A stretch of 64,000 bases of DNA from Cymodocea nodosa (Eukaryota; Streptophyta; Magnoliopsida; Alismatales; Cymodoceaceae): the NCBI GenBank assembly GCA_036874045.1, contig CM072343.1:15706001-15770000 (forward strand), in the 5' to 3' direction. The notes under the pieces are model-generated. The model saw only the letters and a list, made by a program, of their open reading frames with translations. It did not search any database and was not told the DNA's origin. Below are positions 6,200 through 64,000 of the stretch, one piece after another; the stretch's first letter is position 1; every line of letters starts with the position of its first letter. Position numbers and translations under genes: made by a program.

Positions 6200-7197
6200 A
6201 TTAACCTTAAGTTTTAAAATATAAATTCACGAATCAATACTTTGAAGCTTTCAACTAGAGTTTGTGCATAGAGAGCTTTCTATACTTGAGTGTTTTTCAA
6301 TTTTGCATTTGCTGAATCTGTATTCTAATTTCTATATAGCTCTGTGTATGAGTGTATATGATGATTGTTCTTTTTCTTTCACTTATTGATCATACTTATA
6401 CCAAGAGGTATAATGATCATATTTCTTTTAACAGTATTTGTCCTTTTGTATTTATTGAACAATCAGTTCCAAATATAATAAGTTACCATTCAATATAATT
6501 CAAATATATTGTATTCTTGAAACCTTTCAAAAATTTGATCAATTGTCTTGAAACTATCCAAAAAACTCGAACAATTATTCTAAAACTATCTGAAAAACTC
6601 GAACAGTTATTAAAAACTATCCGAAAAGCTCGAATAGTTATTCCTTTTAACTTGTCATGTGAATATTTAAGTTCTACACGTGAGTCTTCTTAGTTTCGGA
6701 TAGTTTCTTTGAAACTCTCTAAAAACTCGAACAGTTATTTTATAGCTATCTAAAAAATTCAAATAATTATCCTGTAACTATCTGAAAAACTCAAACAATT
6801 ATCATGTTATGCTTGTCACATGATTCTTTAAATTTTACACGTGAGTCTTCTTAGTTTCGGACAGTTTACTAGAAACCCTTTGAAAACTCAAACAATTATT
6901 TTGTAACTATTCGAAAAACTTAAATAGTTATCTTGTAACTATCTGATTGATCTTTCCATCTTGTAGCTGTTTTGTAATTTGAAATTTAGATAGTTTAACT
7001 TGAAACCTTTCGAAAAGACTATGAAATCTTTCGATCAGCTGTAAGACTATCTAATTTATTGTAACTCAATAATTTTATTTAATGTTCATTTGAATCAATA
7101 TTCCTTTAACTTGTTTAACCTTTGTTTGTCTTTCATTTATACCTATGAAAATAACTCACATGAATTTTTGCATTATCAAAACATAAAGGTTCTAATA
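6200..7197 (-). repeat. 5' LTR of left-edge Copia
   Basis: Partner of the LTR at 1-1187 and collinear with about 235-1187 of it. It lacks the inner tandem-repeat end seen in the other copy. The outer end at 7197 (tctaata) corresponds to tctaaca at 1181-1187. No clear target duplication could be checked because the other end is off the window. Confidence 0.78.
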
Positions 7198-7199
7198 GT

Positions 7200-8750
7200 C
7201 TTCTCTCTCCTAATGATGACCCACGTGATATGTTAGAGGATCCTCTGATGTTACCTAGTGTGCCTCCTCCATTGTAGGTTTATACTTGACAATCACGATA
7301 CGCTATTGATGCCTTGCCTCCATCCTCCAATTCCAGCTACGATGTCTCCTCCACCACCAACTCTAATGACCATCCCATTGCACATTATAAGGGCACTTAC
7401 ACATGTACTCAATACCCCTTATCTAATGTCATTTCTTATGCTAACCTAACTCTCACTTTTTGTAGTTTTTCCTTATCCCTTTTTGTAGAGCTAATTCCTC
7501 GAGATTATCACTAGACACTCCAGACTCAACATTGGAAGACTGCTATGGATGAGGAGATGACAACTGCCCTTTTTTGTGGCACTTGAGACCTTATTTTATG
7601 TCCTGCTGATGCTAATGTCGTCTCTTGCCGATGGGTCTTCACCATCAAGTATCATATTGATGACTCTATTAACTGCTACAAGGTTCACTTTGTTGCTTAA
7701 GGTTTCTCTCAAGAGTATGGTATTAACTATTTTGAAACATTTTCTCTCGTTGCTTGATTGGACTCTGTTCGGGTTCTTTTCTCTTTTGCAATTTGTCACT
7801 TTTGATTGGTTTACCAACTTAATGTCTTTTCTCTATGGTGACTTAGAAGAATAGATATTCATGGAGTAACCTCTAGATTATGTTGCTCAAGGGGTGTCTT
7901 GTATTTGTTGATTGAACAAAGCTCTCTATGACCTTAAACAAAGCCCTAAGGCCTAATTTGCTAAATTTACAACATTATGTAGAGTGTTTGTTTTGGAAGC
8001 TGTTAGGTTGACCATTCTATGTTTATTAAGAAAACTTCTCGCAACATTGTTATTCTTACAATCTATGTTAATGATATGCTCTTGATTGATGTTGATAAAC
8101 CAGGCTTTGATAATACAAAGTAATTCTTGAACCAACATTTTGCTACAAAAGATTTAGGCACTTTTCGATATTTCTTAGGAGTGAAATTTGCATACTCAAA
8201 CACAAAGAGTTGATTATGTTGAGACCTTTTCGTAGTGGTTTGTCTTGACTCTATCAGTATCCTTATCTCCATTGCTATCAATCATTCTTAGGAGATGCAT
8301 CAACTTAATGTCAAGAAGGTTTTCTTTATATTGATTTGTAGGATACAATCTTAATGGAGTAACCTCTTAAGTATGTTGCTTAATGAGAGAACATGATGTG
8401 TCAATTTAAGAAAACTATCTATGATTTAAAACAAAGTCTGTGTGTATGGTTCCACAAGTTTAATGTCATTATCACTAAAGGTGGTTTTACTTTGTGTCAA
8501 ACAAACTACTCAATTTTTGTGAGGAATACATCAACTAGACATATCATTATTATTATTTATGTTGATGACATTCTTGTGACATGAGAATAACTCTCTTAGT
8601 ATAACCAAAACCAGGGAATATCTTATGACTCACTTTGTCACTAGGGATATGGAAAGACTTAACTACTTCTTGGGTATAGAGTTTCTTACGCTAAAGAGAA
8701 AGTATCTCTCTTACAAAGAATGGTATCCACGGTTGTCCAAGTAACAATGT
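7200..8750 (+). mobile_element. Copia reverse-transcriptase scraps
   Basis: Plus-strand remains of two Copia pol pieces head to tail: about 7510-8215 and about 8215-8750. The first shows the WKTAMDEEM and CRWVFTIKY words of Copia RT. The second shows YVDDILV near 8560. No LTRs were found. Both are fossils with many breaks. Confidence 0.75.
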
Positions 8751-13100: not shown

Positions 13101-14389
13101 ACAAGAAGGGTGTTCTCAAGCTGAATATCTGGGGTGGCCTCAACAGTACTATGTTTAGATATCGGGCATGAGCGGCCATCAGCCACAGTGACACTGTGGA
13201 GACTCAGAATTTTCTGGAGACGAGAGAAAAAAGTAGGGCAACCTGTCATGTGCTGAGAGACACCAGAGTTGATAATTCAAAATTGTGCCTCACTTGTACG
13301 CATAGCCATACTAGAAGTGGAAGCCAAGGAAGCCATGGCAATGTGATTGGGGCCTTGTGCCCTCTTCAACCTCTCATACTCTTGTTGAGTAATCACCACA
13401 GAAGCCTCCCTAGATGTACCACCATCAGATTCTGTTACCACTCTCACTCAAGCTGGCTTGTCAAATTTCTCCCAACACTTCTCAGAATAGTAGTTAACTT
13501 TACCACAATAAATGCATGGAGTCTTACGTCACCCAGATCCCCTTTGACTAGATACAAAGTTGGGACGACTCTCTTGTCGGTCAGATGCCCCTTTTATTGT
13601 CAAAGCTGAGCTATCTTGAGTCTCTGTAATAGTCATATTGTCTGCCTTAGAGATACGGAGGACTCAAGCAAAGGCAGATCCTAGGTTAGGTGTAGTGTCT
13701 CCTCCTAGTAGGTGTCCCTGGACTTGAGAGACTAGCTCTGGAGGGAGCCCAAACAAAAACGCAGCGACCTGTAGATCATTCCTGTACCTCTGGAGTGTGG
13801 CCAAGTCAATAGTCGGAGGCTGAAGAGCATTCAACTTCTCAAAGAGTGACCTCATCGTCCCATAATATTCCTGCACAGATTGACTGCCCATCTTGAGTGT
13901 GAAAATCTGCTCATAAATATCATACACCTTCAAGATGTTCCTCTCTTCCACATACATTTGTCTAAGAGTATCCCATATTAGTTTAGCTGGACGAAACATC
14001 ATGACACCCTTAGCTACGGTTGGCTCAATGTTATTCTCTAACCAAGTAACTATAGTAGCATCATCAGCAAACCAGTTATCATACCTTGCCTCATTGATAT
14101 CCATCGGTGGCTGAGTTAGGTATTTACTCTTCCTCTGAGTAGCTACAAAGGTGAGGAAACTCAATGACCATGTGTGATAGTTAAATTCATTAAGTTTCAT
14201 AGATGGCCCTGATAAGGGACGAATCACAGACTCCCTAAACACCATCAAGCCAACAACTAGACCTTTTAGATGGTTTCAGCAGTCACCTTCTACAACCCCA
14301 ATGATTTCAGCAGCCACCTTCTACACTAGGTCAGTAACTCCAACTGACCTAATTACTCTTACTAGTCACCATTCAGGATGACAGTCACG

Positions 14390-23000: not shown

Positions 23001-26000
23001 TAGGTTTCAAATGGCAAGATATCAAAGTCCATGCTAGAAATCACAAAGCATGTAATAAAGGATACTCATTTTCAGAAAAGTCAGTTCCTTTGATATCTGG
23101 ATTACCAGAGTTGATAATCCCACCAAAAAGCTATACATTAAAAAAATTATCACCATAATCAATATAAACATTCAAAAAATTACTTGATTTGAGTTGGAGT
23201 AACAAAATTTACAATTCTAAAATAACGTTGATTTTATTTATGCTGCTTGACAAAATACAATCTTGACCAAACACATAATATTATATTATAGTTATTAGAT
23301 AAAATGAGGATTAACTTAAACTCAAATATCTGGAACCTATTGATGCACTAATTACAAGGAAAGCTTAAGTTGTCCATACCAACATAAACATATCCTAAGC
23401 ATTTAACATATGTTATTAGATACCATAAAATCATCAGAAATAACTTTGGTAGGGGCTTCTAACACTGTAGGCAAGTCCATAAATGGATGAACCTAAAGCC
23501 AACATATCTATGATGACATGATGTATTTGGGTAAAGGAGAAAGAGAATTATCAATCTATCAATAAGCAAGGAGTTATATATATCCTTAGAATGTCAAAGT
23601 ATACATCAGTTAGAAAAGAAGAATTAATTAATGTGAAAAAAAAATTAAAAAGTAAAGAAGACTCAAAATTACTTGGTTAGGAATTGTGAAAAAAAATTTA
23701 AATTTATGCATTTTAATCGAAGATTTGGTCATAAATACAGATATAAGAAAAAAAATTCATGTGATCAACCTTACATAGTAAGATTATAACATGGGCTGTT
23801 ATTATTATTGTAGTATTTTCAAATGTGATACATCAAAAGTAGCATATAATATTGTGGAAAATGTAAAAATTGATTGATCTCATTAACAAATATAAGGTTT
23901 CCATGGAAGCTACATAAAAAGGTTAGTACAATTTAAACAACATAAGACTAGACCTACATGTGACATATAACATACAACACATATATAATATCTTAATACT
24001 CTCCCACAAACTAGAGCATCCAGTTTACAATAAACTTAATAATAATCCAATAAACTTAAACATAGAAAAAAATAATAGATATATAAAGAAACATAAAAAC
24101 TAGTTAATATAATGGTGGTAGTAGTAAAAGATAGTAATAGTTGTAGTAAAAATAACAATAATAAGAATAATTTATGATAGGTCTAAAAAGAACTATATCT
24201 CAGATAGTAATAAATTAATCATTGGATGATACAGTCAAAAGTAGTAAATAGAAAGACAAATATAGTCTATCTTCAAAAGAGTTATAGTTAATCCTACCAT
24301 TTACCAATGCTTAGTTGAATTTCGTTAGTGTAACATTTAGAATATTGGGCAAAAGTTATATTGCGTAAATGTCTATAGAGATCATAACAATACTTTGTTT
24401 TAATTAAATAATTAAATTTCCGTTGTTTGTATGAATTTTGAGTTAACCATTCCATGCCTAGGTAAGACTTCCCACAAGAGAATGTTCCTTGTCTATCTCC
24501 TTGTCAATGTGTAGTAACTTGCTCATGCCACAAATGCAGCTCAAGTAGTCTACCAACAACCAACAGGTTAAAGATTGCCTTCTTTCTCTTTTAGGCCTCA
24601 CACCTTAAATAGATCATAGATTTCTTACAAAAAAATATAGTCTATCTTTAAAAAGTATAGACAGGTAGTTAGAAGTGGTCTACCCTCAACACTTTTTTTG
24701 TGAAATTGATTTTTTGTGTTTTTTAAAATTCTACCCTTTTTAACATATTTTTTTACAAAAAATCCTCTTTATTCTCTTTTCTCTTTTCTCTTTCTTTCTC
24801 TCTTATTACCTTTCTTTCTCTTTTTTCCTTTCTCCCTCCCCCATCCTTCCTCTGTTTTTCTCCCCTTCTTAAACTTTTTTTGTCTACAACCTTAAAGCAT
24901 ATAGGCCACGATGATGGATGGGGGTAAAGGATAAAGTTGTAATGTTGGTAACACATCTTGTGGAAAAAGTTGGCACATCAATGGGAGAGAATTTAGAACT
25001 CAATGGTGAGGCTGTAGGCAAGGTGGTGGTACACATCATGGACATATTAGGGCAACAATGACTTGAATGGGCATTTTAATGGCCATGGCGGCAACAACAA
25101 GTTCTATAACCAAAAAAATGATGATCAGAGAAGAAAATAGTCTCAATGTGAACATTGGCATGTTGGATAGGGGTTGACAATGGTGGAAGAGGAGGAAAGG
25201 AAGGAAAAGAAGGCAAGGGAGGAGACAAAAGGTGGGGGCACAAGCAATGGACAATGGTTAAGAAGGGTGATGGTGCAACTAGTATTCATGTTGATGAAGT
25301 GCAATAGTGGCTAGAGAAAAGAAGGGAGTAGAGGTGTCTTGCAATTAGGGAGGAAAGGTCAAGGGTAGGTTTAGGGAGGTAGGTGGCAACAATGGAGATG
25401 AAAGTGGTGGGGGATCATAGATAAGGGAAAAATAAAAGAGCACTTCATAAAGGCATAGGGAAAGTAGGCATGAAGGTGGCAAGAGAGGGTAGAGATGACA
25501 TGTGCTACAATAAAGGAGTGGGCATCGGCAATTGTGGTTTTGGATTGGGGAGGAGGGTTGCTAGCAATGGCTAGTGTTTCTCTCCTCCCACTTTACATAT
25601 TTCTCTAAATGTTTTTTAAAACTTGAACTTTAATATCATATGAAAAACAAAAAATAGTAGGACAATAGTGTAGGCAGGCAATGGTGTAGCCAATCTTCAT
25701 ATCAATGAAGTGTGATAGCGGCTAGAGTAAAGTAGGGAGTAGAGGAGTCTTGCCATATAACATCAATTTATGCATTTCTAAATATATCTATTCATGCATT
25801 TTGTACTTCATGGAATATTAATTTGGTTGATTTAACAAGATTTGTAATTTAATTGATTATACATGAATTTAGATGAAAAAGAGTTTAATTAATTATTTTA
25901 ATAAAATGGAATACATAAATTGATTATGTAGAAATTTATTATTGTGGAAGCATTTAATTACATGCACTGTGTTGTTATTATCTTCTTTATTACTTCATTT

Positions 26001-29000
26001 TTATTATTGTGTTTTTGTAAGTTAACTCTATTTGTTAGAAACATTGGATGGAGATTGCAAAATTCCCACCCTATATTTAAGGCTTTTTTAGGGTAATGAT
26101 GGAGGGCCCAATTCTTCTCCTCTTTCATCCATTTCTTCTTCCCAACCACAACCACTCATCCACATTCTCTCTCGGGCTACACAATCATCTTCAGCAATAT
26201 GTATTATCATTGAAGATGTGCAGTAATCCATGTTGACTGGTGGCTGTCACTAGTGGGTTGTATAGAAGAGAAAGGGACATGGCTGTGTGGTTTGTCACTC
26301 TAGTCCAAGCTAGCATGCATGGAGGTCTTCCATCACTAGTGAACACAAGATTGTTGATACATGGAGCTGGAAGAGGAGTTGATTGGGTCGTACATATAAT
26401 TGATCATTGCAACAACAACACATAGTGCATAATAGACTTGATGATGATGTGTTATTATGGGTTTTTTTACTCCAAGATAAACTCCTCCTTTCGGTGGCAA
26501 ATTTATTGGTGACAGCAACAAAGTTTGCGTGAAGGGAGCTTGTTTCAAGTATTGTGTGTGAAGAGTTCAGAAGAAGATGATAGAGCTTGAGGTACACGAT
26601 TCTAAGGAGGGAATAGATCAATTATTTTATCTTGTAGAACTTTACATTTAATATAGGTTAGTGCATTACATGTAGTGTAGTTTTACTCCCTTGTTAGTTA
26701 AGATATTTGTCACTATCTTTTTATTAGAAAAAACCAATAGCTAAGTATTGAAAAAAATATATATATATTGCACATTTGTTCATATATGTGATGTAATTTT
26801 TATTGCATAAATTCAGGTGTTTGTATTTTTCTAATTTAGCGATCAATCAATATTTTTATTTGCACAATATTTGAAAAATTCTAATGTGTGAATTCCAATT
26901 TTCCCATAGATTCAACTCGTATTTGCATATGTTATAATTGACACCATGCGCTTGCAATAAAACATACAAAAGTTTTTTGTGCCATTGTTGGCAAACTTGA
27001 TAAAATTTACATCAGATTTTTCTTAACAGTGCTTTTACCTTTATTTTTATTTTTCTTTGGTGCCATTTTTCTTTTTTGTATTTATTTTAGAATTTTCATA
27101 GTGTCAGTTGTCCTTTTAGTTTACATACTTTATGTTTTGCATTTTCTTTTGTTTACGTTTCCATTTTCATAATTTACATTTTTGGTTTTTGTAGTTTCTT
27201 TTAATTTTAGTAGTTTATGTTACTTAATAGTAATAACAATAAAATATAATAGTAATAATATAATAATAATATATATATATATATATATATATAATCGGAT
27301 TTGAGTTTGGAATTTTGAGTTGAATTAACTTTTGGAAAGTTTTTAAGGGTATTAGTGTGTGGGGCCCTTGAGATTTAAAATTACCAATTTTGTGTTCTTA
27401 TTTTGGTATTGCCAACTATATAATATTTGAATTGAATTTTTATTTGAATAGTTGACATATTTAGAGTCTTCACACATTAATTAGTAAATTGAGGTTTTAA
27501 AATTGATTGATCGCAAATCTTTAAGGATTTAAATTGCTCTTTCTCTTAATGGTTTGACAACCTTTAATTAAGAGATTTAATTATCTCTCTTAATTGAGTG
27601 CCAACATTTTGAGAATTCATTTTCTCTCTTTCTTATAATTAATAAGAACACATTATTGCACCTTGATTCGATAATATCTCTCTCCTACGCTTCCTCCTCA
27701 TTATTTAATAATTGTTAAACCTCTTTATTTATTTTTGTTATATATATTACGAAATTGGATTGTAGTAATTTATATAACAATAATTATAGTTCATTTGTAT
27801 TTCATACATGTTCTAAATGTGGTTTTAGTGATCATGTTAGAGAAGATTGCCCCTTCTATTTGCTTAAAGAAGATTTAAACCCTTCTTCTCATCAAGAAAT
27901 TTCTATACATGAGCATGCCTTTAAAGAGGTTAATTATGATCATGCATCTAATACTTAATCTTATGCTAATATTGATTATTCATCATATGCTTATGAACAA
28001 TCTTATATTGCTAATGATTTTAATAATACCATGTCATCTTGTTCTTCTTTTAATTTAGAACATGCTATTGCCGAATTAGATAATACAATTAAACAATTTG
28101 AATTAAATGAAAATAATGATAGCAATGCTAATTACAAAATTGACATGAATATATTTAGTTCTAATTGTGATAACGAAGAACAAGCAAATATTGCAAACTC
28201 TTGCATAACCCTTAAATCTGGTAAAATTGTAGGTGAACCTGAAAATAAAGATCCAAAAATTACACCTACAATAGATAATGAAGTGTTAGTTCTTTATTTA
28301 TAGATTGAATTTTGATGATGAAAAACCTAGACAAATATTTTAATGACCTATTTTAATTATACGATTTTTGCCTAGTTGGTTTATCTAGAAATATTCCTAC
28401 AAATCTTTGAAAATGTGCTTTGAAAGGTTTCATATTCCTGAAGGTATGAAATTAGAGACTTTCACTGATAGTCACCGAAGCTTAAGTCAAGTCAGAAGGT
28501 TTCAACATTTAATGTTCTTTTCAAATGGTTTCATTTGAAAGTATCTAAAATATATTTAACTATTGGTGAGTTTCCGTTTTTAAGTTTTTTGAGTATTTTA
28601 TTTTTGAAAGTCACTGAAATGTTTTTCTGAATCAGAAGATTTCACATTTAAATATCAGATGGTTTCACTAAAACACTTAAAAAGTGTTTTTGCTACATTG
28701 AAACCACTCAAACAAAGGCTTGAGTGACCTAGAAAAGAAATTGACTATAATGGAAAAAGGGATTGAGTTGCTTGTCAAGTTGTCACCAACTTTGCTCAAA
28801 GGTCAACAACCATGATCAACCCATTTCTAGGATTGAACACTAAGTTAGCTAACCATGAGCCATAATGCCTAAGAGTAAGGAACCTTTCTTAGTCAAGTCA
28901 TTCCTAACTGTCGCATACAAAGCAATTTGGGAAGTAGAGAGAATCCTAAGGGACTGAATACTAGTTCATCTTGACTAGTGAGAGCACCCTAGTATTGGCA

Positions 29001-32000
29001 TGTATCTTTTATTTTGTTTTTTTTTTATTGTTTTGTTGTCATTTTTATTAGTGTTCTATTATCATTTTCATGTTTAATGTGTTTGCTCTTGTTTTAGTTT
29101 TGTCAATAAGTTGAATTAGGTACCCTTCTTCTACTTAAGCTAATTTTTCATATATTTGATTATGCTTGCATACTCATTCATATCATATTGCACCTCATGT
29201 CATGTTTAGGTATGAGGGGGTGCATCTGTTTTTGACTTTCTAGTATTTTCAGGTCTTTGTCTTTATAAGAGAATATGTTGAGTTATTTTTGTCATTTTGC
29301 ATTAGACTACATTTCTTAACCATGCTTTATTCATTTTTATGCATTATTATTGGATTTTAATACATTGAGGACAATGTATGAATTAGGTGGGGGGGGGGGG
29401 GGTTTCTCAAGTTATTTCTTGTCTTTTTAATTTTGTAGTAAGTCTTTGTGATTTATTAATATTAATAAAATTTTTTATGCCTATAGGTCCTAATTGGAAG
29501 AGTTTTTAGGATTCCTTAGTTGAAAAACAAAATGATAAAAAAAGAATGAAAAAAAAAAGAGCAAAAAATAAATGGGCAATGGATTTGGGGATAGAATCTA
29601 AGAAATTTCTTAAGTCACTTAGACTACGTAAGGTATGTGAATATGTAACTTTTTACATTTAGCATTTTCACATTCACACATATAAATGATACTCTATTTT
29701 CTTAGGATTGACATTTTAATGAAGAATTTAAATCTAATCCAATGGAGGATTAGAGAATCTAAATGGTGGGGACACAAAAGAGATAAAACTTAGGAGACTT
29801 AAATCACTCTACCATTGTTTAGGAAACCATGGGCATTTTTTTTGTTTTGCAAATTTTCCTTTCGTCATGTTTGTTTTCTTTTGGTTGTATATTTTTTCTT
29901 TTTGTTTTGTGTATTTTTATTTAGTTTTGTGTTAAGTATTGTGTTTTTTTAATTTTCATTGGATTTTGTAGGAATATCTGCTAAAAATCCTCCAAAGACA
30001 ATACTTTACCATTAAGGTGATCTAAGAGTTTAAAAGTTTGTTGCATGTACTAAATACAACCATGATTTCTATAAAAGTGAGTTAATATTTTTCTTTCAAT
30101 GTTTGTTTTGTTTTTCTTAATAAACACGTAATGTATGCTATCATTTACTTCTAATTTATTTTTAATTTAAGTTTTACATGAAACTAACAAAGTTTAGGTA
30201 TAGGAGATTTTGTATAACATCAATTTATGAATTTCTAAATATATTTATTCATGCATTTCGTACTTCTTCATGGAATATTAATTTGGTTGATTTAACAAGA
30301 TTTGTAATTAATTGATTATACATGAATTTAGATGAAAAAAAGTTTAAATGAATTATTTTAATAAAATGGAATGCATAAATTGATTACATAGAAATTTATT
30401 ATTGTGGAAGCATTTAATTACATGCACTATGGTATTATTATCTTCTTTATTACTTCATTTTTATTATTGTGTTTTTGTAAGTTAACTCTATTTGTAGAAA
30501 CATTGGGCGGAGATTGCAAAATTCCCACTTGATAGTTAAGTCTTTTTTAGGACAATGATGGAGGGCCTAATTCTTCTCCTCTCTCTTGTCCATTTTTTCT
30601 TCCCAGCTGCAACCACTCATCCACATTCTCTCTTGGGCTACACAATATCTTCAGCAAGATCTATTATCATTGAAGACATGCAACTATCCATGTTGACTAG
30701 TGGCTATCATTGGTGGGTTGTATGGAAGAGAAAGGGACATGGTTGTATGGTTTGTCACTCCATTCTAGGCTGGTGTGCATTGAATATAGGTTAGTGTATT
30801 ACATGCAGTGTAGTTTTACTCCCTTGTTAATTAAGATGTTTGTCACTATCTTTTTATTAGAAAAAACCAATAGCTAAGTATTGAAAAAAAAAATATATAT
30901 ATTGCACATTTGTTCATATGTGTGATGTGATTTTTAGTTTGTGATTTCATAAATTCAAGTGTTTGTATTTTTCTAATTTAACAATTGGTCAAAATTTTTA
31001 TTTATGCATTATTCAAAAAATTCTAATATGTGAATTCCAATTTTCCTATGGATTTGACCCATATTTACACATGCTATAACTAGCATTGTGCGCTTGCGAT
31101 AAAACGTATACACTTTCCAACAATGGTTAGGGTTTCTCTCTTCCCACTTTACATCTTTCTCTAAATGTTTTTTAAAACTTAAACTTTGATATCATATGAA
31201 AAACAAGAAATCATAGAAGTAGAATGATATCATTGACAAATATAAAGTTTATATATGGAGGCTATATAGAGAAGACAAGAACAATTTAAGTAATATGAAA
31301 CTAAAATCACATACATAATATTCCAATAGTCTAACAAATATCTCATACTCTTCTTCCAATATTTAGTGGCAACTGTTAACACTTAAGTATAGGATCTATT
31401 TAGGTATAGGATCCATTTATGTATAAATGGATCCATGTATATATATATACTCTTGTACTTCTTATTAGAATAGAGTGAGGAGAAAAACAAACCTTTTTTT
31501 TCGGTCCAACTTGGTATCAGAGCTTCTTCTCTCCCTGTCGAGCATCGCCGCCATCAGCCATTCCTCTTGCATCTCTCTCTTTCTCCCACCGAACACAAAC
31601 TGCGTCGGCCTCTTCCCTCTCAACAAAAGCGGCTCCCAACTCCAAGAGCCAGTCTTCGTGGTCAGTCTCGATGAGTCGTCGATGCTAACCACGAGGAAAA
31701 GCTTTGTGGCTCATTTGTTCTTCCCGGTAGGAGTCCTCCACCGGTTGCATGCAGAAGTCTGTCCGTAGTCATCTATCCTCTCCTGGTGAATAACATACGC
31801 AGTCACCATCATTTCTCTGCTTGAGGTCCGTCTCCTTTCATTGTTTGTCTCCACTTAAGGCTTGTTTGTCTTTGTTGCAACCTCGCCTCGTCTGAGGTCT
31901 CCATCTGCCACAAAGCCCTTCCTTTTGTCAGTTGAATAATCCGCAAATCATCTAGTATCCTCGCAACTGACAAGAGCTCGTTTGACCACAGAAGAGGGCA

Positions 32001-35000
32001 GTTGAACAGACAGGTCAATCTGCTATAGTTGAATAGACAGTGTAGTTGGACAACGGTAGCTCATCTTGAAAAAAGGGCATCTTTATCGTGAAGATGGCCT
32101 TGTCAGAAAGCTCAACCACAACCGCCTATCCTTCTTCTGGTCATGGAAGTGAATTGTTTATAAGAAACTTCCTAAGTATCTTTGAAAAATTGAATGGGTC
32201 TAACTACCTTTTATGGGCACTGAGTTTTAAACGAATTGTAATAGCTTATCAAAAAGAACAACACTTGTTTTGTCCTCTGCTTGATGACACCTCCACCGAG
32301 TATCGAGACTAGTATGCTGATGATGTGGCCATCAATTCCTAGATGTTGTTTAGCATGGTGCCCCAAGTTGCTTGTGATGTCTCTATGATGAAGACCTCCA
32401 GGGAAATTTGGGACAACCTCCATCAAACCTATGGTCATGAAAAGAACATTTCTAGAGTTTTTTAGGTCTATGAATCTTTATTCCGGCTTAGACAAGGTGA
32501 TCACTCATGTCAGGAACATTATAGCATCTTTCGAGGACTGATAAATGAGCTTAACATTTATCAGCCTCCCACCTCTGATGTTAATATATTCAGACATTCT
32601 AGGGAGGAACTTGTTGTGGCCTTCTACCTTACTAGTCTTAATCTAGATGTTGCATCTCAGATCTGAGGATATGTATTAGGTGCTGATAGAATGCCAGATT
32701 TAGTTGAGACCTTTTCCAAGGTCATGTGTGTCTCTACCTAATCATCCTATAAATCTACTCTTATACACGTTGAGCAGTCGGCTCTTGTTGTCTCTAGTAG
32801 TCGTGGACGTGGGCGTAATAGAAGGCGAAGTGACTGTCAACGACCCAAATGTCAATGGTGTAGATGTTTTAGGCACAAGTCTGAGAAATGCTAAGACAAA
32901 TTTCCTCATCTAAAGCCATCTCCACAAGCCAACCTAAGTGTAAATTCCTCTCGTATGGCGAATGTAGACTCAAATCAGATGGTCACCATTTCCCAATCAA
33001 ACTATGAGCACCTTCGTCAATCATAGGGAACTACACCTATAGCCATGGGAGCTCTTCAGATTATTCCAGTTTTTCATCCAAGTACGAGTACTACATTGAT
33101 TGTTTCTAGTGATGACCCTTGAGTTATAGATTCAAGAGCTTCTTTATACATCTCAGGTACATCTTCTTTATTTGACCGCCTAAATATTATTACCAACAAA
33201 TCTACCGTTAACATTGCTAATGGTTGTTCATGTCATGTTTCTAGTCAAGGGAAGGTTCAAACCTCCTCCCAACTAAGGCTGAACGATGTTCTTTATATAC
33301 CTGAATTTTCATTCAATCTCTTATCTATTAGAGCTCTTACTGTCCAACTACAATGCTCAGTTACCTTCTACCCTTTTCATGTTACCTTTCAGGACTTGCA
33401 GATGGGATAAAAGATTGGTTTGGGCCGTAGATGGACAATTGATAAGGTGTACTTGCTAGTTCACGACAATGTTCCTCATGGGTTAATCGCGTGTTTATCA
33501 AGTACAAATACTTCAACTTTGTGGCATCGCTGCTTGAGTCATCTCTCATGGGCCAAACTTCGTCAAGCTCTCCCATGGATGTTTGTTTCTTTTTTTGATT
33601 GTGAGTCCTATCAGCTTGGGAAACATCATCGTGCTACTTTTAAGCATCTTCGTCTTGCATCATCTACTAGTATATTTGATATTGTCCATTGTGATATTTT
33701 GAGTCCTAGTCGTGTTGTGTCTGCTTTAGTTCACAAATATTACATTATCTTTATTGATGATTTTTCTTAGGTATCTTGGGTGTATATGTTGAAAGATCGT
33801 CAAACTATTCTAGATGTTTTTCAAACTTTTTTAATTGAAATAAAAAACCAATTTTCCATCTGTCCAAAAATTTTAACTGACAATGCACTTGAATTTGTTT
33901 AACATGAGTTTCAAAATGTGTGTGTTTCTCATGATATCATTCATCAAACGACTTGCTCTCACATCTCTCAACAAAATAGAGTGGCTGAGCGTAAACACCG
34001 TCATATTCTTGATGTAGCTCGCATTCTCTTGGTTCATATGCATGTTCTCAAGTATCTCTAGTCTGATGTCATTCTTACTGCCATTTATTTGATCAATAGA
34101 ATGCCCTCCACCTCCTTGAGAGGTGCTATCCCTATTCGACGTCTTGTCCCTGAAACTGAACTTTTTTCTATTACCCCTTGTGTGTTTGTCTATGTGAGTT
34201 TTGTTCAAAATCTCTCACTAGGGTTAGAGAAATTATCCCCCAGGTCTATTAAGTACATGTTTATCGGGTATTCTTGCACTTAGAAGAGATATCGTTTGTA
34301 TTATTCTTCTACCAAAAAATATTATACTTCCATGGATGTGACATTCTTTGAGTCTCAACCCTACACTATTTCTATGAAAGCTTCTCCAATAGGTCATGTT
34401 TCTGAAAGTATTCCTATTCAAACCTGCTCTCCTCCATTGAGTCTTATTCCTCATGTCCCAGAATTTGCAAATGTTAATACCAATGATATTGATGCAACCC
34501 TAGATACTTATGCTATAGATTCTAGAAATCAACCTGTACAAGACACAAATGATCAATCTACATACCAGGTATATTGTCGAAGACCACGGCCTCTAGCTTT
34601 GCCTACACCCCCTCCTTCCATTACTTCTGTCGATGAGTCTATTTCTTTGTCGCCTGATGATAACTTACCTCTTGCCTTACAGAAAGGGACATGCTCGTGC
34701 ATACATCCCTTATCTTATGTTGTCTCCTATACTAACCTAAATTTCAACTTTCGTAACTTTGCTCTATCTATTACTTCTGAATACTTACCTAGGGATTATC
34801 ATGAAACACTCCAGATACCTCATTGAAAGATTGCTATGGATGAAGAAATGGATGCTCTACTCTCTCGTGGTACTTGGGATTTGATTCCTTGTCCTGATGA
34901 AGGTAACATAGTTTCATGCAAGTAGGTTTATACCATCAAATGTCGCCCAGATGGGTCTATTGATAGGTACAAGGTGCGATTGGTGGCTAGAGAATTCTCC

Positions 35001-38000
35001 CAAGAGTATGATATTGATTATTCAGAGATATTTTCTCCTGCTGCTCGCCTTGATTCCATTCGTATGATTCTATCTATAACTGTGAATAAATCATAGGGGT
35101 TGACTCAACTTGACGTCAAGAATGCTTTCCTATATGAAGAATTTGATAAACAGGTATTTATCTAGGGAAAAATCCATTTTCATGGAGCTCAAGAAAACAG
35201 GATTTTGTAATACAATCTACTACTGAAACTGAACTAGTTGCCGCCAATGTTGTAGGAAACCAAACTATTTGGATCAGAAAACTTCTAATTGATTTGCAAA
35301 TGAAACAAACGGACTCAACAACAATTTTTGTTGATAATCAGGCTACACTTGTTATCTCAAAAAATCCAATTTTTCATGGGCATACAAAACATTTTAATAT
35401 AAAGATATTTTCTCTAAGGGAATTCCAGAATTTAAAGTCTATAAAACTAGAATATTGTCATTCTAACATATAGTATGTAGATATTTTTACTAAAGCTCTG
35501 GCAGTTGGTAAATTTCAGTTGTTACGAAGATGTCTCTATGTTGAAGACCTTCAAGCCATGGGGGAGTGTTGAACGTAATGTCTTGAAGACGAGCTTTTAC
35601 TATCTTTAGTAATGTCCGTTGTGTGTCAATGTGTGGTTCTCATTTATTATGTTGATCGTGGTTACATGATTGTGGTTATGCATCCGTATTTTGTGATGTT
35701 AAGGTCATGATAGATGGTTAGTGTTAGGGGTGATTTTCTCATCTATTTATGCATGTACTCTGTGTGTATAAATAGATTTTTTCAACATCAATGAAAATAG
35801 TGATTCCGCAAATCTTGGTGTTCTTCTTCACATCTTCTCCTCTTTCATCATATTTGTTAATCTTGATTCACAGTTATTATAGTAATCCATCTGTGATAGT
35901 AATATGTCCCTATTAGCATTCCAAATTATGTCACCTCTTGCTCTAGTTTGATTTTTGCAAGTCCTATCCATATTTAATTTTAGTCTACCAATTTGAGGTT
36001 TCATCCATCTAATCGATCTGGCTCTGATCATATTGCCTTGAGTATCTGTCAGTTCATAAGTCCTGATAGAGTTGTCTAAGTTGCTCACCATATTCCTCTT
36101 GATTTTAGCAAAGGAAGCTCTCTTCTCTTTAAATAGAATTTTACACCTGTGTTTCTAGAATTCCCACAAAAAGTTATCTATAGCAAACATCTGATAACAA
36201 GGCAGTTTACCTTTACTCCAACTCTGTAGAGTGCATAAAATCCAGTACTTTATGCCTCTTGGTTAGAAAGATTTAACTGAAGAATACGATAGAGCCAACT
36301 TCTACTAAGAAATGCCCATTCACCCTCAAAACACGTGTGATCAAAACAATCAATATTCTTAAAAGAACTGCAGCAAACACACATTGAAGTAAATGGAGAA
36401 GCCATTTTTTTAACATTCTCCTCCATAGGAAGAGCATTGTTAAATCATTTCCATAGAAAAAAGAAGTTTTCATGGGGATGTAGGACTTCCAAATGCTAAG
36501 GTTCTATCTCTTGATTTCAATCTTTGCACAAGAAGCTTCCCAAGCAATCTTCACCAAAACTCTACCATTCTTCTCTCATATTCATTGATACTGATCGTCC
36601 TCCTTACTTAAGAATTGAAATTTATTAAGGATTTCTTGAAAGTACATGCCCAATAGGATTGATTTTTCTGCTCGAATATAAAATAGCAGTCTTCCATCCT
36701 ATCAATTTCCTGTGAAATTTCTGTAGAAGTCCATCAAAATATACTATTTTGGTTTTACCTTTAAAGATAAGACAACCCAAGTATGTGAAAGAGAGAATCC
36801 CTTGCTTGAATCCCATAGCCTTAGAAATCTTTTGTGTTCGAACTTCAAAGCTGTTTCTAGAAACAATGAATGAGCTTTTATACTGATTCACCTTCTACCT
36901 TGAGAAAATTTGATACCAGGCTAGAATGTCCATTACTTTCTCTGAACTACTTTTTTCTACCATTTAGGAATAGTATGGTATTGTCAACATAAAGTAAGTG
37001 AGATATTACAAGGCTAGCATAATTAGTGTTGCATGGAATAATCTTCCTTTCCTCCTCTAGCTTTGTTAGGCCATAGCTAAGAACTTTTTCAACTAAAATA
37101 AATAAACCTGGTGATAGGAGATCACCCTAACATAAACCCTTGGACAACCTAAAGAATTCAATAGAAGCACCATTTGGGAGAACGAAGAGAGCATTATCTT
37201 GTATTTATCCTTTGATCAGCTAAATAAAGTTATTAGAAAAACCAAACTTTTCCAACACAATATAGATAGAATCCTACTTGATTCTGTCATAATTCTTTTC
37301 ATATCCAGGTTCATCACCACATTGCCACCTCTATATCCATTATCAATTCTTTGCACAAGTTCCTAAGTGAGAGTCACATTATCAAATGTTCTACCTTTGA
37401 TAAAGACACCTCAAATATCTGAGATCGATTTAATCAAAGTACTATGCATGCACCTAGTAAGAATGGTAGCAATAATTTTGTATCTTACTTTAGACAAATT
37501 TATGGGTTTTACTAATTTAAAATCTACTAGATTCTCCACTGTAGAGATTAGGGAAAGAAAAGTCACTTTCCATGACCTATCCAGAGTACCTACATAGAAG
37601 AATTTCAGGATTACTTGAACCTAGTCCTTTTCAATAATTTCCCAGCAATGTTGATAGAATTCTACTATAAACCCATTTGGTCTAGGAGCCTTGTCCTTTC
37701 CCATCTCAAACACCATTTCTTTAATTTCAACAGTTGTCATCCAACATAGCATATCATTCTCACTGTCCTCCACTACCATAGGCAGGATATCTGCCAAATT
37801 CTTGTTCCATTTCTCTCTCTTCGTAGAGAGTAGTCTTGAGTAATAGGTCCAAGGTTTGTTTCTAACTACCTCCACATCATCATTAGCATCTCTATTTATT
37901 TGAGCAAAGTACTTATTCTTCCTCCTTTTGTTCAGCACCATGTGAAAATAGTGAGAGTTGCGATCACCTTGTTTCATCCATTTGATCTGAGATTTCTAGG

Positions 38001-44000: not shown

Positions 44001-47000
44001 TGTTGATTGCAGTGATGGCTGCTGCTTTAGGGTTTAGGTTATTTTAGTGACGTACAAAGATCATTTGAAGACAAAAAAGGTATCAGAATAGATTTATTAT
44101 GCTAAGGTATATATGCAAGATTAGAATTAGAATTTAGAATAAAATACAATTATATCCCTAGTTCTCCATACATTACAAAATATCAACAGAATTTTATGGA
44201 AGAAACAATTAATATCATCAAAAGAAATTCAGCATGGTATAGTTTTTTTATACATCATCAAACATACTAATGAAGAACAACGTACACTCACCATTCCCCA
44301 TTTGAAAGTAAAGGAACTCCCTTAGGAATAAAGAAAGTTGCTGCTTCTCCGATAACTGCAACATAAAAATAAAATTAGGATGTATCATGTTGCATCTTTG
44401 ATTATTTTCTCTAACATTTCAAGCTAAACTTTATGCACATGATCTCTTGAATAAACCAGTATGACAGATATGCTACATTATAGACTAAGAATCATGTCAT
44501 ACAATAGAATACTTTTGGCTGTTTCAAAATCTACTGACCTATTATGCACGTGACCACAAAGTCAAACTGGTTTTGACCTTCCATCCAGTATTTGTCAAAT
44601 CCAAAGGAATAAATTTTTAAAATGACCTCTATGACATAAAGCCAACCTGTGCAAAAAAAGATACATAGTTAATTATGTACAGTGCAACAAGCAAACAATA
44701 TATTGAGAACTGAAGAATGGACAAATATTATTGTGTAATAAAAGAATGAATACATTCACTACAACTGTTTGACTAACAAGAAATCAATCGATTTAACAAA
44801 AGAAAAATCCCTGATCTATTTGTGAGGTGGAGGCCCAAGAAAAAGAGATTACAAGGGAAGGACTAGGCCTAATCCTCAACAAAAGAAAAGAGGATAGAAA
44901 ACCAAAAGCTAGGCTTGGGTGATAACCACTAGTTTCATACCTTGTGAGTGGATGGAATACCCCACTTATCTAACTTCCAAACACCTCTAACTATCCTAGG
45001 AAGATCCTTAACATCTCTATAGATTTTAGACACCCTAGCATGAGTACCCTCCTTAGTTAGAAGATCTATTGCAATAGTGGCTTCCCTGAAGATATGTCTA
45101 ATAGAATGAGTGTTGGATTAGGTCCACAATATAACCCTAGAATGAGAAGGCCTACTGATCGTAAAAGGTACTTGGACAAGAGGGGAACAACTTTGCTCGA
45201 GCCATTGGAAAGGGTAGATGGTCTAGCCAGTGTTGGACATTGGCCTTTTGGTGATGGTTGGTGGCAAAGGATGCATGGATTACTGGTGGCATCAATGCTG
45301 TCCAAAGCCTTATCTTCCAAAGCCAATCCACTTGTCTAGAGCTTATCTAAAACAATTCAAAAGTTCGAGCAGGTTTCATATTGAACCCACCAAAAATAAT
45401 CTAAAATGGGAAAAAATCAACAATTCAGATTGATATATGAAACCATGGTTAGAGTAAATAATGCATTAGGATTATATGTGTTAAGGATTTAGTCAAATGT
45501 TACTAATGTATTAGGGTTATATGAGTGTTAAAGGTTTAGTCTAACATTACTAGGTGGTGTTTGTCCCTCTTATATAGTCTCTATATATAAAGATTTTATG
45601 TTTACTAATGAATTCGTTTCTCTTTCACTGATTTCTTATGTTCTCACACATTAAACCTAAAATCTCACCCCTTTAATCATAAGACTCTCTTAGCCTTTCA
45701 ATGCATAGAATTAAAATGGAGATCCAATTGCTTTGAACTCATTGGCTTATGATCTTGACCATTTGATGTAAAGACAATGGATGTTAAGGAAAATATTAAA
45801 AAAAAATAAATTAACAACATATATTTAATTTAGTGGATTCAACATTACCCCATCATGCTTTCACACTTAGGTTGCCTACCTTTATATCCTAGTTAAAAAC
45901 TAATGGGGAGAATGTCAAATATATTGTTATAGCTTTTGTTCTAAAATTTTGTTGAATGTCCATGATCTACAAATGTACATGCAGAGTGAAATATGGATAT
46001 TAAGATTTGATCAACTGAACTAGAAATTTTGGATTTAAAATTTGAATTCAAAAATTAAAAGTTAAACGTTGTTATATGTTGATAATCATATAAATAATTT
46101 GTTAAATTATTTGCAAATTTAGAAATCCAAAAACATGATTGCTATGGATTGTTGAGCAAAAATTGGAAGTTGTCATTAAGCAATTAAAACTTTTGCTAAG
46201 GATTATTTTATTTTGTGTTTTGATGATGAAAAATTAAATTAAGTTATGAATTACATAATGGATAAGTTAAATTATTAGTGCAGATTTCATATTATAACTT
46301 ATATGATTGATTGGGTGAATAATATGCCTTATTTATATAGTTGCTGTAATTTAAATTTAATGAAACAAATTGTGAGACTTTGAGATTAAGCTCTACACAC
46401 GTGGACATGATTTGACATTATTTTTGTAGTATCTTTGGAATGACAAATTGATGGTCATGACTGCTGTAAATTCATAGACAGAAAATAAAGTAGTTTATTT
46501 TGCTGAAATTGATATTACCTTATTAAATCGATTTTGACCTAGCAAAATGGATATTATGTTGTTGGTAATCATTTATTTAAGTTCATAAGCATCATATCTA
46601 AATGTTATCTAAGTTTATTTACTTCTGAAAATAAGTTTAAGCCTTGCATTTGATTTTCAAATGAAAGGGTGAGCTAAATTAGGAAATTTCTGTTGCATTA
46701 GTTATTTTTTTAGAATGGATGTATAACGATTTTTTTGACTGCCAATTTAGAGTCAAAGATTTGAAAGACTTACCTAACATATGAACCATATAAAGGAAAT
46801 GCCAAATAAAATTTTGAAAGATGTTTGAAACATTGCTATAAATGGAAAAGACAGAGATTATAGAAATTAGACAAAATGAAAATTACTGTTGCTATAATTA
46901 AAATTCCCTACAAAATTAAGGGGAATGTTGCTGCACTTCAAGGGACATCGAAAGAGCTTGGAGGAGAAGGCCGAACATGAAGAGAAGTTTCAAGGAGGCG

Positions 47001-50000
47001 TACAAAATTCTTGTAGGAAGATAGTCCACAAGAACAGAAAATTGAAACTCTGTTTTGATTTTCCACTCGATTTTCTTTATAATTTTTTCTAAATTTTGAG
47101 AAACACTTGTAAGTTGTTCTTTCCATCCTTTTCAGTGTTTTCTCCTATTCCAAACATTATTTTAAAGGTTTAAAACACCTAGACCATCGGGTTGTGGTGG
47201 TGGAAAATTATAAAGTTGGTGCTTTATAATTTTCTTAAACTTAAGGTTAATGCCTTAAGTTATGTGTTGAATTTTGCAAGATTGGAGCCTTGTAAAATGG
47301 CTGAGAGTTGAGGGGTTCATCTGTAAATACCTGGACTACTCAAAGTTGGTGCTTTGAGTAGTGATTTTTGTATCTATGTGTGGTGTTGAGTTGTAGCTCA
47401 AAAAGATAAACACAAAAATAATAAAAACTCTTAAGTTAAGGCTTGAAGAGTGGACTACCCATTTTAGAAAATCACTATAAAAATTTCTTATATTCTTTGT
47501 GATTGGATGCATGTTTCTATTAGCTGAAATCAAGATTTTAATCTTCTATTTTTAAGATTACAAATTTAGATTTTCACTTGCGCTCTATTTCAACTTATTA
47601 TAACTCAAGTTTTTAAGTTCACCTAAATTTTTAACTTCCCTATTTAGGTGGGGTTTGTGCATTCAGAATTTGTCGGAATTGAAAATTTTTTCCGTCAAAT
47701 TCCGAGTCATGAGGTATTCGTGCATTTTGAAATTTAAATTCCTTAAGAAATTGAATTTTAATCATGAGTAAAAGGTTGGAATTCATTTTCCAAAAGGTTA
47801 CTCAACACTCGCCCTCATGCTTGCCCTCACCCTCACGGTCGACGCTCGCCCTCCTACGTGATTCTGAGCTTCACCAACAACAAAGTCGATGAAGATGGCT
47901 CATGAAGTATGTCTTCACAACGTTCGATGGGATGTACGTCATCGACAGGGCCTCGGAGCCTCCGCTCGATGTGGCCGCTAGGTACAAGGTGAAGTGGATC
48001 GACTTCACCCACACATTCATGAAGCTGGCCATCTTCATCGCCATCATCGTCCTTGACCAACAACCTTTGTTGTGCCTCTACCCAGACGCATCGTACCTCT
48101 TTATCTTGTCCCTCCAGCTCGTGCCCCTCTTCATCGTTTTCATTTGTAGCACTCTGCTCATCAAATTCCCCACCACCCGCCATGGCATCGGCTTTCCGAT
48201 TACTTCTCAATGAAGGTCTTCTTTCTAGTAGTTACTAGCTTACATCTTTCTTTGTCCATTCTACCGAGAAAATGATTAATATTTAAGATAGTTATATGTA
48301 TGGTCTACATTTTTTATTTTTATGGGCTTGTTATTTGTCGTATTTTTCTCCAAAATCAATATATAATTTTTTTCCCTTGTCGCCATAATGATGTTACAAC
48401 CATGACAATCCACTTGAGAAGGCAATGGTATTTATCTCTCTAATTTTTATTCTTATATTGCTGGGAAAGAATCACCTTCAATCTCTCGTCTCAACGGTGA
48501 ACTAACAAGAGTAAATCAAGCAAAACAATATGACTTCACGTAATAAATCAATTGTTTAACCTGTGGTTTTACAAATAAAGACGTATGTTTGTCATTGTTG
48601 CATTTATTCTTCATTACTCTAAATCGCTTCAACCGTAGTCAAAAATGTGAAAGTTTAAAAAATGGTTTAAATTAATAAAGTTTAATTTATTGATAAATGA
48701 TATATAAACATTTAATTTAATAATATGTTCATTTATTAATGTAATTAATTCATTTCTTGATTAATTACATTTTCACTAATTACTTTAATTCGTTACTTAA
48801 CTTTATTAAAAATCAATTCTATTCAATTCTGTCATATACACAAACATCTAAATTTCAATTTTTGTCAAATTTCTGAACATGTACAAACACCTAGATTTTA
48901 AATTCTTTTTATCAAATTCTATAGAATTCAAATTCCGTTAAAATTCAAATTCTACGTAATTCAAATTCTGAGTGCATAAACAGACCCTTAGCCTCCTCTC
49001 TAGTGAAGCTCAATCCAACAACCTTAAAAGTAGTCATTACATTTGAAGGTTTGACTTGTAGAAAGGACTAAACATTTTCTTAGATATCCATTGAAAGCTT
49101 TTTGTGACAAAAGTCATTCCAAATGTCTGCCTTGAACGTTTGTTAAGGCGTTTTCCCTAATAATTTACTCTAGACTTCCAATAAAGTGTAAGACATGAGT
49201 ACATCAGATAAAAACATGCATATGTGAAACTAATTGACTTCCAATAAAGTGTTTTGACCTCTTCTTCAAAAAGCCTAATTGCATGTTTCCTAGGAATGTT
49301 ACTCATAATATTTGTCTCCCTACAACCTATGTACAACCTTGATTTCAAAGATTGATCCAGATCGGCAATTTTTTGCTGATCCAAATAATTTTTTGGCAAC
49401 TTTGATACAAAATTTACCTAAAATTCTGGATTGAACAACCATACTTGCAACGACTATGCTGAAGACACCACATCAGATCCATCCTCCTTTCACTTACATC
49501 AACAGGGGTTTGCATTGACAAAGACTACCACCTCCTTTCCTCTCTGCCACCATTGTAACCCATTAGGGTTTTCAATTGAGGAGAGGAAAACAAAGAAAAT
49601 GAATGAGAGGAGGGAGTGTATGTGTTATTATAGTTGGATAGGGTCCTAGTAAATAACATGGTTAATTTTCAGCCTTTAGTCAATATGTACCTCATTCCCA
49701 TTCAGATCATCCTCTAATGATCCTTTCATTGACAGAGATCCATTGACCCAATAAGGTCCCTTTCTAGTTTTAGTGAATGTGGACCTTGCACCCAAATTTC
49801 CACAACTTGGTGGAAGGTTTATGAAATGCAATTGAAGTCCATGTCCTTTGTGTCAATTAAATAAAAGGTTGGCAAATGTTAAAATGCATCTCAAGCACTG
49901 GAATTAGGCAGTCTTTGGGCATGTGGAGCAAAAGAGTTCTCAACTCCTACAAGAGATCAAGCTAGTGGAAAGTAGGCTTAAGGAGGGCTAGGATGAAGAA

Positions 50001-62803: not shown

Positions 62804-64000
62804 ATTAGTATCAGAGCAAGTTCATTTTATTATACAAATCTAACCATCTTAGATCATGACTTTTCATCCTAAAGAAAGACAAAACATCTATTGACTTTCT
62901 CTATTTAATAGTAACAATTATAACTATTGGAAAAATAAGATGAAATATTTTATTAAGAACTCAGATGTGAAGCTCTAAAAATTGGTTTTACTACACCATT
63001 TCCAACCAATCATGAAGATGATTGGATTGAGAAGAAGAAAATCATCTAGATGGATGCTCATGAAATGAATGCAATTTATTGTACACTTGTTATTGAATAA
63101 TATAATAAAATTTCTACATGTAAATCTGCTCATGAAACCTAGAAAATCCTTCAAATAACTTATGAAAGAACCTAAAATTAGCATTTTATTGAGAAAATAT
63201 GAATTGTTTAGAATGTTTGATAATGAAAATATCATTGATATGTTTTCAAGGTTTACAGAAATTATAAATGAATTGAAAGGCCTTAGAAAAGAATTCTTTA
63301 GTCGTGAACATGTACAAAAGATTCTGAAGAGTTTGATAGCTGAATGGAAACAAAAGTCAACATTCATACAAAACTCAAAAGATCTTAACAATTATTCAGT
63401 TGAATATTTATTAGGAAATCTTCTTACTCACGAGGTTTAAATGAAAGAATAAAAGAGGAAGCCACTGAAAGAAAAGCTAAAAAAAAGAAAGAATTAGTCT
63501 TTCCTTCAACAAAAGAACAACAACATTTAGAAGAAGACGAAGTATTACTACTAGCCAAGAACTTTAGAAAAATGATGAAACGAGGAAGTAAAGCTAGCAC
63601 CTCCAGATCTAAAGTCCCTATATGCTATAAATGTAAAAATTAGAGACATATTCAAATTTATTACCCATTATTGTAGGAGGAGGATCAACAAAAATAGAGA
63701 AAGAAGAACAAGAAGAAAATAGCATTGAAAGACACATAGGATGATAGTAGTTTATCCAGTAGTTCTTTAGATTCTAATGAGAATGTGTCTACAAATGTGT
63801 GTTTTCCAACACAAGAGATATGCTCTATATCTCCTTATTGTTTTGATAACAAAATGATAATCTAGATATAAAGAGTCTTCTTTGTATAGTAGATAACTTA
63901 TATGTAAAGTGTAAAAATTATAAGAAAGAAGTTAAAAGTTTAAATTCTTGTTTAGAAGATGCATTTACTGAATTAAAAAAAGCCTTAGTTAATAATAGAA

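What the first reader, a model, noticed from the sequence alone, without database searches (positions are those of the whole stretch)
47647..48987. PIF/Harbinger-like element has captured the 3' half of a DMP gene
Matching inverted ends, TTA on both flanks and a GC-rich, clearly DUF679-coding interior show a gene piece carried by a DNA transposon. Pack-MULEs are well known; Pack-type PIF/Harbinger elements are less common, and DMP genes matter in fertilisation and haploid induction. The captured part keeps an almost intact C-terminal half with two membrane helices. If transcribed it could act in trans on its parent gene, but that is inference.
Basis: partly seen in the sequence, partly recalled or inferred. 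Interest (0 to 1): 0.75.

Follow-up and report, generated by a model that had tools for sequence, protein, structure and literature searches.

The report
Jumping gene carrying fertility-gene fragment
A short plant transposon that cannot move by itself here has picked up the second half of a membrane-protein gene of the DMP family; it is a well-formed example of a known kind of gene capture, and nothing so far shows that the fragment does anything.

Summary
At 47647-48987 lies a 1,341-bp unit bounded by TTA on both sides and by inverted ends that match at 20 of 26 positions. Of 9 TTA/TAA pairs in the window with the PIF/Harbinger end motif at both ends, it is the only good one (next best 12/26); 1 of 300 shuffled windows reached 20. 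Inside is a GC-rich block (change points 47806, 48199) whose frame is DUF679/DMP (Pfam E 4.8e-23, profile positions 67-163 of 163; from 50 across a frameshift). No other Pfam family passes its cut-off in six frames of the element. Best explanation: an old, non-autonomous Pack-type PIF/Harbinger element carrying the 3' part of a DMP coding sequence. New detail: TIR-like copies lie stacked inside the right end, and more weakly the left, as expected of subterminal repeats or of an element made by fusing neighbouring insertions. Pack-PIF elements are described in maize and PIF transduplication in grapevine, so this is a new member of a known kind. No host genome was held, so copy number, parent gene, empty site and expression are untested. 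An effect on fertilisation is speculation.

The parts
47644..47646 (.). left target site duplication TTA
47647..47672 (+). left terminal inverted repeat, G(N)5GTT motif kept
   Evidence: 20 of 26 against the right end
47712..47758 (+). weak inner TIR-like copy at the left end, same orientation as the left TIR
   Evidence: score 35 against the right inner copy, 7 of 1412 AT-rich chunks as good; against the outer TIRs it is not unusual (88 of 1914 chunks, and the opposite strand scores higher)
47806..47854 (+). GC-rich start of the captured block; may be more DMP sequence (hydrophobic frame) but unproved
   Evidence: GC change point; only +1.1 bits in Pfam, about what a wrong frame gains
47855..47901 (+). 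5' piece of the DMP match, in another frame than the main piece
   Evidence: score rises from 82.3 to 91.9 bits, profile start from 67 to 50; wrong-frame control 83.3
47902..48213 (+). main DMP/DUF679 fragment, open from the first ATG to a TGA stop (103 codons), two hydrophobic stretches
   Evidence: frame; PF05078 positions 67-163 of 163; hydropathy
48214..48812 (.). AT-rich filler, origin unknown; possibly the parent's 3' flank or element sequence
   Evidence: GC 26% after 48199; no Pfam match above cut-off in six frames
48813..48850 (-). innermost TIR-like copy of the right end
   Evidence: score 34 against the neighbouring inner copy, 4 of 1430 AT-rich chunks as good
48853..48891 (-). inner TIR-like copy of the right end (core 48866-48888)
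   Evidence: score 27, 0 of 1914 chunks as good; 37 against the left TIR (no control computed for that figure)
48962..48987 (-). right terminal inverted repeat, G(N)5GTT motif kept
48988..48990 (.). right target site duplication TTA

Best explanation
A degenerate, non-autonomous PIF/Harbinger (Tourist-like) element of 1,341 bp that carries the 3' part of a DMP (DUF679 membrane protein) coding sequence: a Pack-type PIF element. Shown: paired ends, 3-bp duplication, DMP homology confined to a GC-rich block inside the ends, no transposase match inside, TIR-like copies stacked inside the right end and more weakly the left. Inferred: a PIF-type transposase made elsewhere moved it into a TTA site; the DMP piece was acquired earlier, perhaps when two neighbouring related insertions came to move as one unit (the Pack-TYPE model of Gisby and Catoni); the cargo is now passive and has taken at least one frameshift. 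If it does anything, feeding small RNAs against its parent gene is likelier than a working protein, because the first part of the domain is missing.
For: TTA duplication plus G(N)5GTT at both ends with 20/26 identity, the only such pair of 9 in the window, 1 of 300 shuffles. DUF679 match E 4.8e-23, extended upstream across a frameshift with a wrong-frame control. Coding block and GC change points lie wholly inside the ends. Six frames of 47600-49100 give DUF679 and no transposase. No DUF679 match in six frames of 45001-47898. Stacked end copies. Precedent for the kind: PMC8903248, PMC2528002.
Against: Only 9 of the outermost 14 bp agree, one mismatch more than the 4 in 14 allowed in the Medicago survey (PMC2213677). 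A 3-bp duplication is short. No second copy of the element in the window (best other matches to its ends are AT-rich, E 0.003 or weaker), and no host genome to look in. The search for an upstream DMP piece also failed to see the known piece at 47855-47899, so it could miss a short remnant. No parent DMP sequence, so border and age of capture cannot be fixed. A 4-bp TTAG duplication fits too if the left end starts one base later.
Confidence: 0.8

Rival explanations
1. A native or tandem-duplicated DMP gene that decayed in place, lost its 5' half, and lies between end-like sequences by chance or because MITEs landed on both sides.
For: The DMP piece runs to the end of the profile and a stop codon, as a decaying gene's 3' end would. 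No empty site could be shown: no match to the joined flanks spans the junction elsewhere in the window.
Against: No DUF679 match upstream in six frames of 45001-47898, though that scan also missed the known short piece at 47855-47899, so it is limited. End pairing with TTA and motif was reached by 1 of 300 shuffles.
Confidence: 0.1
2. A gene fragment carried by a TIR element of another superfamily (hAT, Mutator, Tc1/Mariner, CACTA) with eroded ends.
For: Ends are eroded; TA is shared by the flanks at two of the offsets tried.
Against: With each end moved by up to 4 bases and duplications of 2-10 bp tried, no shared flank is longer than 4 bp, so no 8-bp or 9-bp duplication. Both ends fit G(N)5GTT, and the first ten bases of the right end differ at one base from the MtPH-A6-1 consensus (consensus).
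Confidence: 0.04
3. The fragment is under selection as a short two-helix membrane protein or as a regulatory RNA acting on the parent DMP gene.
For: 103 codons from ATG to stop remain open and two hydrophobic stretches remain. A review reports captured fragments as small-RNA sources that can silence donors (PMC13317346, passages).
Against: An open run of 106 codons arises in 17% of shuffles of the block. First part of the domain absent, frameshift present. No expression data.
Confidence: 0.04

Closest known systems
Pack-PIF elements of maize (Zm-Pack-PIF, PMC8903248, passages seen)
   Same: Non-autonomous element with PIF-type ends, TTA or TAA duplication in most, and a captured gene piece inside
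   Different: In the example shown, cluster 18, 72 Pack elements average 535 bp with a 163-bp captured piece of a known parent; here one copy is known, the parent is unknown and the captured block is about 0.4 kb
Pifvine-3 transduplications of grapevine (PMC2528002, passages seen)
   Same: PIF elements carrying exon or intron sequence of the host
   Different: Pifvine-3 is described as a PIF family with canonical coding regions and an added 5' region of up to 3.5 kb; here six frames show no transposase
PIF/Harbinger-like elements of Medicago, MtPH-A6 (PMC2213677, passages seen)
   Same: TTA/TAA duplication, G(N)5GTT TIRs beginning GGGTC; [quoted passage not shown]
   Different: MtPH-A6-4 repeats are 60-bp units; here the repeated unit resembles the TIR itself
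DMP (DUF679 membrane protein) genes (PMC11477165, passages seen)
   Same: Profile positions 50-163 of 163, two hydrophobic stretches; most DMP genes lack introns
   Different: Start codon and first part of the domain absent; one frameshift

Membership tests
PIF/Harbinger superfamily | 3-bp TTA/TAA target site duplication | tested here: met
   TTA at 47644-47646 and 48988-48990
PIF/Harbinger superfamily | TIRs of 14-25 bp with G(N)5GTT | tested here: met
   both ends fit the motif; 20 of 26 identical (definition from PMC2213677)
PIF/Harbinger superfamily | no more than 4 mismatches between the first 14 bp of the TIRs (Medicago survey rule) | tested here: not met
   5 mismatches in 14. This is one survey's search setting, not a biological definition; I read it as a sign of age
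PIF/Harbinger superfamily | moved by a DDE PIF/Harbinger transposase | not testable with these tools
   no host genome; no transposase match in six frames of 47600-49100, as expected of a non-autonomous element
Pack-TYPE element | piece of host gene between the ends, no transposase | tested here: met
   DUF679 piece; no transposase match
Pack-TYPE element | parent gene elsewhere in the genome | not testable with these tools
   no host genome
Pack-TYPE element | related copies with the same ends | tested here: inconclusive
   none in the 64-kb window; rest of genome not held
DUF679/DMP family | match above Pfam's curated score | tested here: met
   82.3 bits, cut-off 25
DUF679/DMP family | complete domain (four to five helices as a rule, PMC11477165) | tested here: not met
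   positions 67-163 in frame, 50-163 across a frameshift: a gene fragment, not a DMP gene

The most novel reading that the evidence does not exclude
The TIR-like copies stacked inside the ends (counting the outer TIRs, two on the left and three on the right) are fossils of earlier neighbouring insertions, so this single element records how a Pack-PIF captured a gene: by fusion of adjacent copies around a DMP locus. A bolder addition, without direct evidence, is that the cargo still makes small RNAs against a fertilisation-related DMP gene.
Probability: 0.15. Interest if true: 0.5.

Novelty: new member of a known kind. Interest (0 to 1): 0.3.

Why it matters
It adds a clear Pack-PIF candidate whose cargo comes from a gene family linked to gamete fusion (PMC10514519, abstract start in the listing) and haploid induction (PMC11477165, passage), and its stacked ends offer a testable case for the adjacent-insertion model of gene capture. 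It would matter more only if small RNAs or transcripts from it were shown to touch the parent gene.

Tried and rejected
Searching the host genome for copies, parent or empty site: not possible, none held. Relatives of the DMP fragment in prokaryote genome contigs and viral contigs: none (51 and 17 pattern stretches, none confirmed). TIR pattern in viral contigs: none. TIR pattern in genome contigs: 2 contigs of one Alteromonadaceae MAG (L001, L002). They are related to each other (78% over 1.1 kb), read like bacterial coding sequence to my eye (not tested), and match the window over 22-23 bp only, so I take it as a chance match. Solved structures: no match for the main fragment. Empty-site copy within the window: no match to the joined flanks spans the junction. 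tRNA genes and Rfam families in the window: none. Bacterial-type promoter and terminator scan of the element: 1 and 0, fewer than in shuffles, and of no meaning for a plant. Extension of the DMP match into the hydrophobic frame upstream: +1.1 bits, about what the wrong-frame control gains (+1.0), left open. The left inner TIR-like copy is not unusual against the outer TIRs (88 of 1914 chunks; its opposite strand scored 22, its own 20) and is supported only against the right inner copy (7 of 1412). Weak Pfam matches below cut-off and not pursued: zf-C2H2_7 (E 0.13), Meg (E 0.11) and DUF6812 (E 0.15). Literature: a search with a TIR start as a term found it in none of the 12 papers listed of 291.

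Full report
What is there. The stretch 47647-48987 (1,341 bp) is flanked by TTA on both sides. Its left end and the reverse complement of its right end agree at 20 of 26 positions, best in the inner part (18 of 20) and poorest in the outermost 14 bases (9 of 14). Both ends have G, five bases, GTT, the motif by which PIF/Harbinger TIRs were mined in Medicago (PMC2213677, passages seen). I counted every pair in the window with TTA or TAA, that motif at both ends and 300-10,000 bp between: 9 pairs, one at 20/26, the rest at 12/26 or less; of 300 dinucleotide-preserving shuffles, 1 had a pair at 20 or more. Without the motif, a poly-T pair also reaches 20/26, and none of 10 Markov sequences did. 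A free local alignment of the 260-bp ends finds an inner AT-rich stretch rather than the tips and is much weaker (7 of 1987 random pairs as good, 21 of 1987 with looser scoring); the case rests on the joint pattern.

The cargo. The frame 47893-48210 on the plus strand matches Pfam DUF679 (PF05078) at E 4.8e-23, profile positions 67-163 of 163. A second piece in another frame, from about 47855, lifts the score to 91.9 bits and the profile start to position 50; the same upstream DNA read in the wrong frame gives 83.3. So at least one frameshift lies near 47897-47902. A hydrophobic frame further upstream, inside the GC-rich block, adds 1.1 bits (93.0), about what the wrong frame gains, and stays open. 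GC change points fall at 47806 and 48199; GC is 54% inside the block, 32% before and 26% after within the element; third codon positions are 75.5% GC. From the first ATG (47902) to the TGA at 48211-48213, 103 codons are open, with two hydrophobic stretches. An open run of 106 codons arises in 17% of shuffles of this block, so openness alone is no sign of selection. Six frames of 47600-49100 give DUF679 and no other family above its cut-off, so no transposase.

Native gene or cargo. Six frames of 45001-47898 hold no DUF679 match, so no well-kept first half of the gene lies within 2.9 kb upstream. The scan has a limit: on its own it also missed the known piece at 47855-47899, so a short or badly broken remnant could be missed. 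Together with the paired ends the result favours cargo. No match to the joined flanks spans the junction elsewhere in the window, so no empty site was seen. DMP genes mostly lack introns (PMC11477165, passages), so intron loss cannot tell a DNA copy from an RNA copy.

Inner structure of the ends. The right end holds an inner copy resembling the TIR (48853-48891, minus strand; score 27 against the TIRs, 0 of 1914 window chunks as good; 37 against the left TIR, without a control) and a further one (48813-48850; 34 against its neighbour, 4 of 1430 AT-rich chunks as good). The left end has a weaker one (47712-47758): not unusual against the TIRs (88 of 1914; the opposite strand scores higher) but similar to the right inner copy (7 of 1412). 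These copies point the way of the outer TIR on their side. Subterminal tandem repeats occur in MtPH-A6-4, and the Pack-TYPE capture model has neighbouring insertions fused into one with dead inner ends (PMC8903248, passages). The data fit either; I lean to subterminal repeats as the more ordinary reading.

How it works. Shown: an end-bounded unit with a gene piece and no transposase match. Inferred: a PIF-type transposase from elsewhere moved it; the DMP piece was captured before that; it is now passive. Any effect on the parent gene is inference.

Place among known things. Pack-PIFs in maize, PIF transduplication in grapevine and a 2026 review of gene capture (PMC13317346, passages) make this a new member of a known kind. 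I found no report of a captured DMP gene: 2 papers hold DUF679 with transposon and pseudogene, neither about capture by title and start of abstract, and of the 10 papers listed of 46 none holds DUF679. That is a limited search of an open-access library.

Limits. No host genome; the prokaryote and viral collections gave no relative of the fragment and no useful match of the ends, so species, parent, copy number, age and expression are unknown.

Noticed in passing
31500-35999 +: Decayed Copia-type LTR retrotransposon: gag, integrase and RVT_2 reverse transcriptase matches in one frame with stops read as X.
   Followed up: partly
13664-14275 -: Copia-type gag fragment (PF14223, E 6.4e-09).
   Followed up: partly
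228-1195 and 6200-7205: Direct repeat of about 1 kb at 81% identity with internal repeats; possibly a pair of LTRs or a duplication.
   Followed up: no
25756-26966 and 30213-31108: Direct repeats at 85-90% identity about 4.1-4.5 kb apart.
   Followed up: no
4994-6109 and 62915-64000: Inverted 1.1-kb repeat at 69% identity across the window; the second copy reaches the window end.
   Followed up: no
48912-48969: Short tandem array of period 16 (TCAAATTCTATAAAAT) reaching into the right TIR.
   Followed up: no
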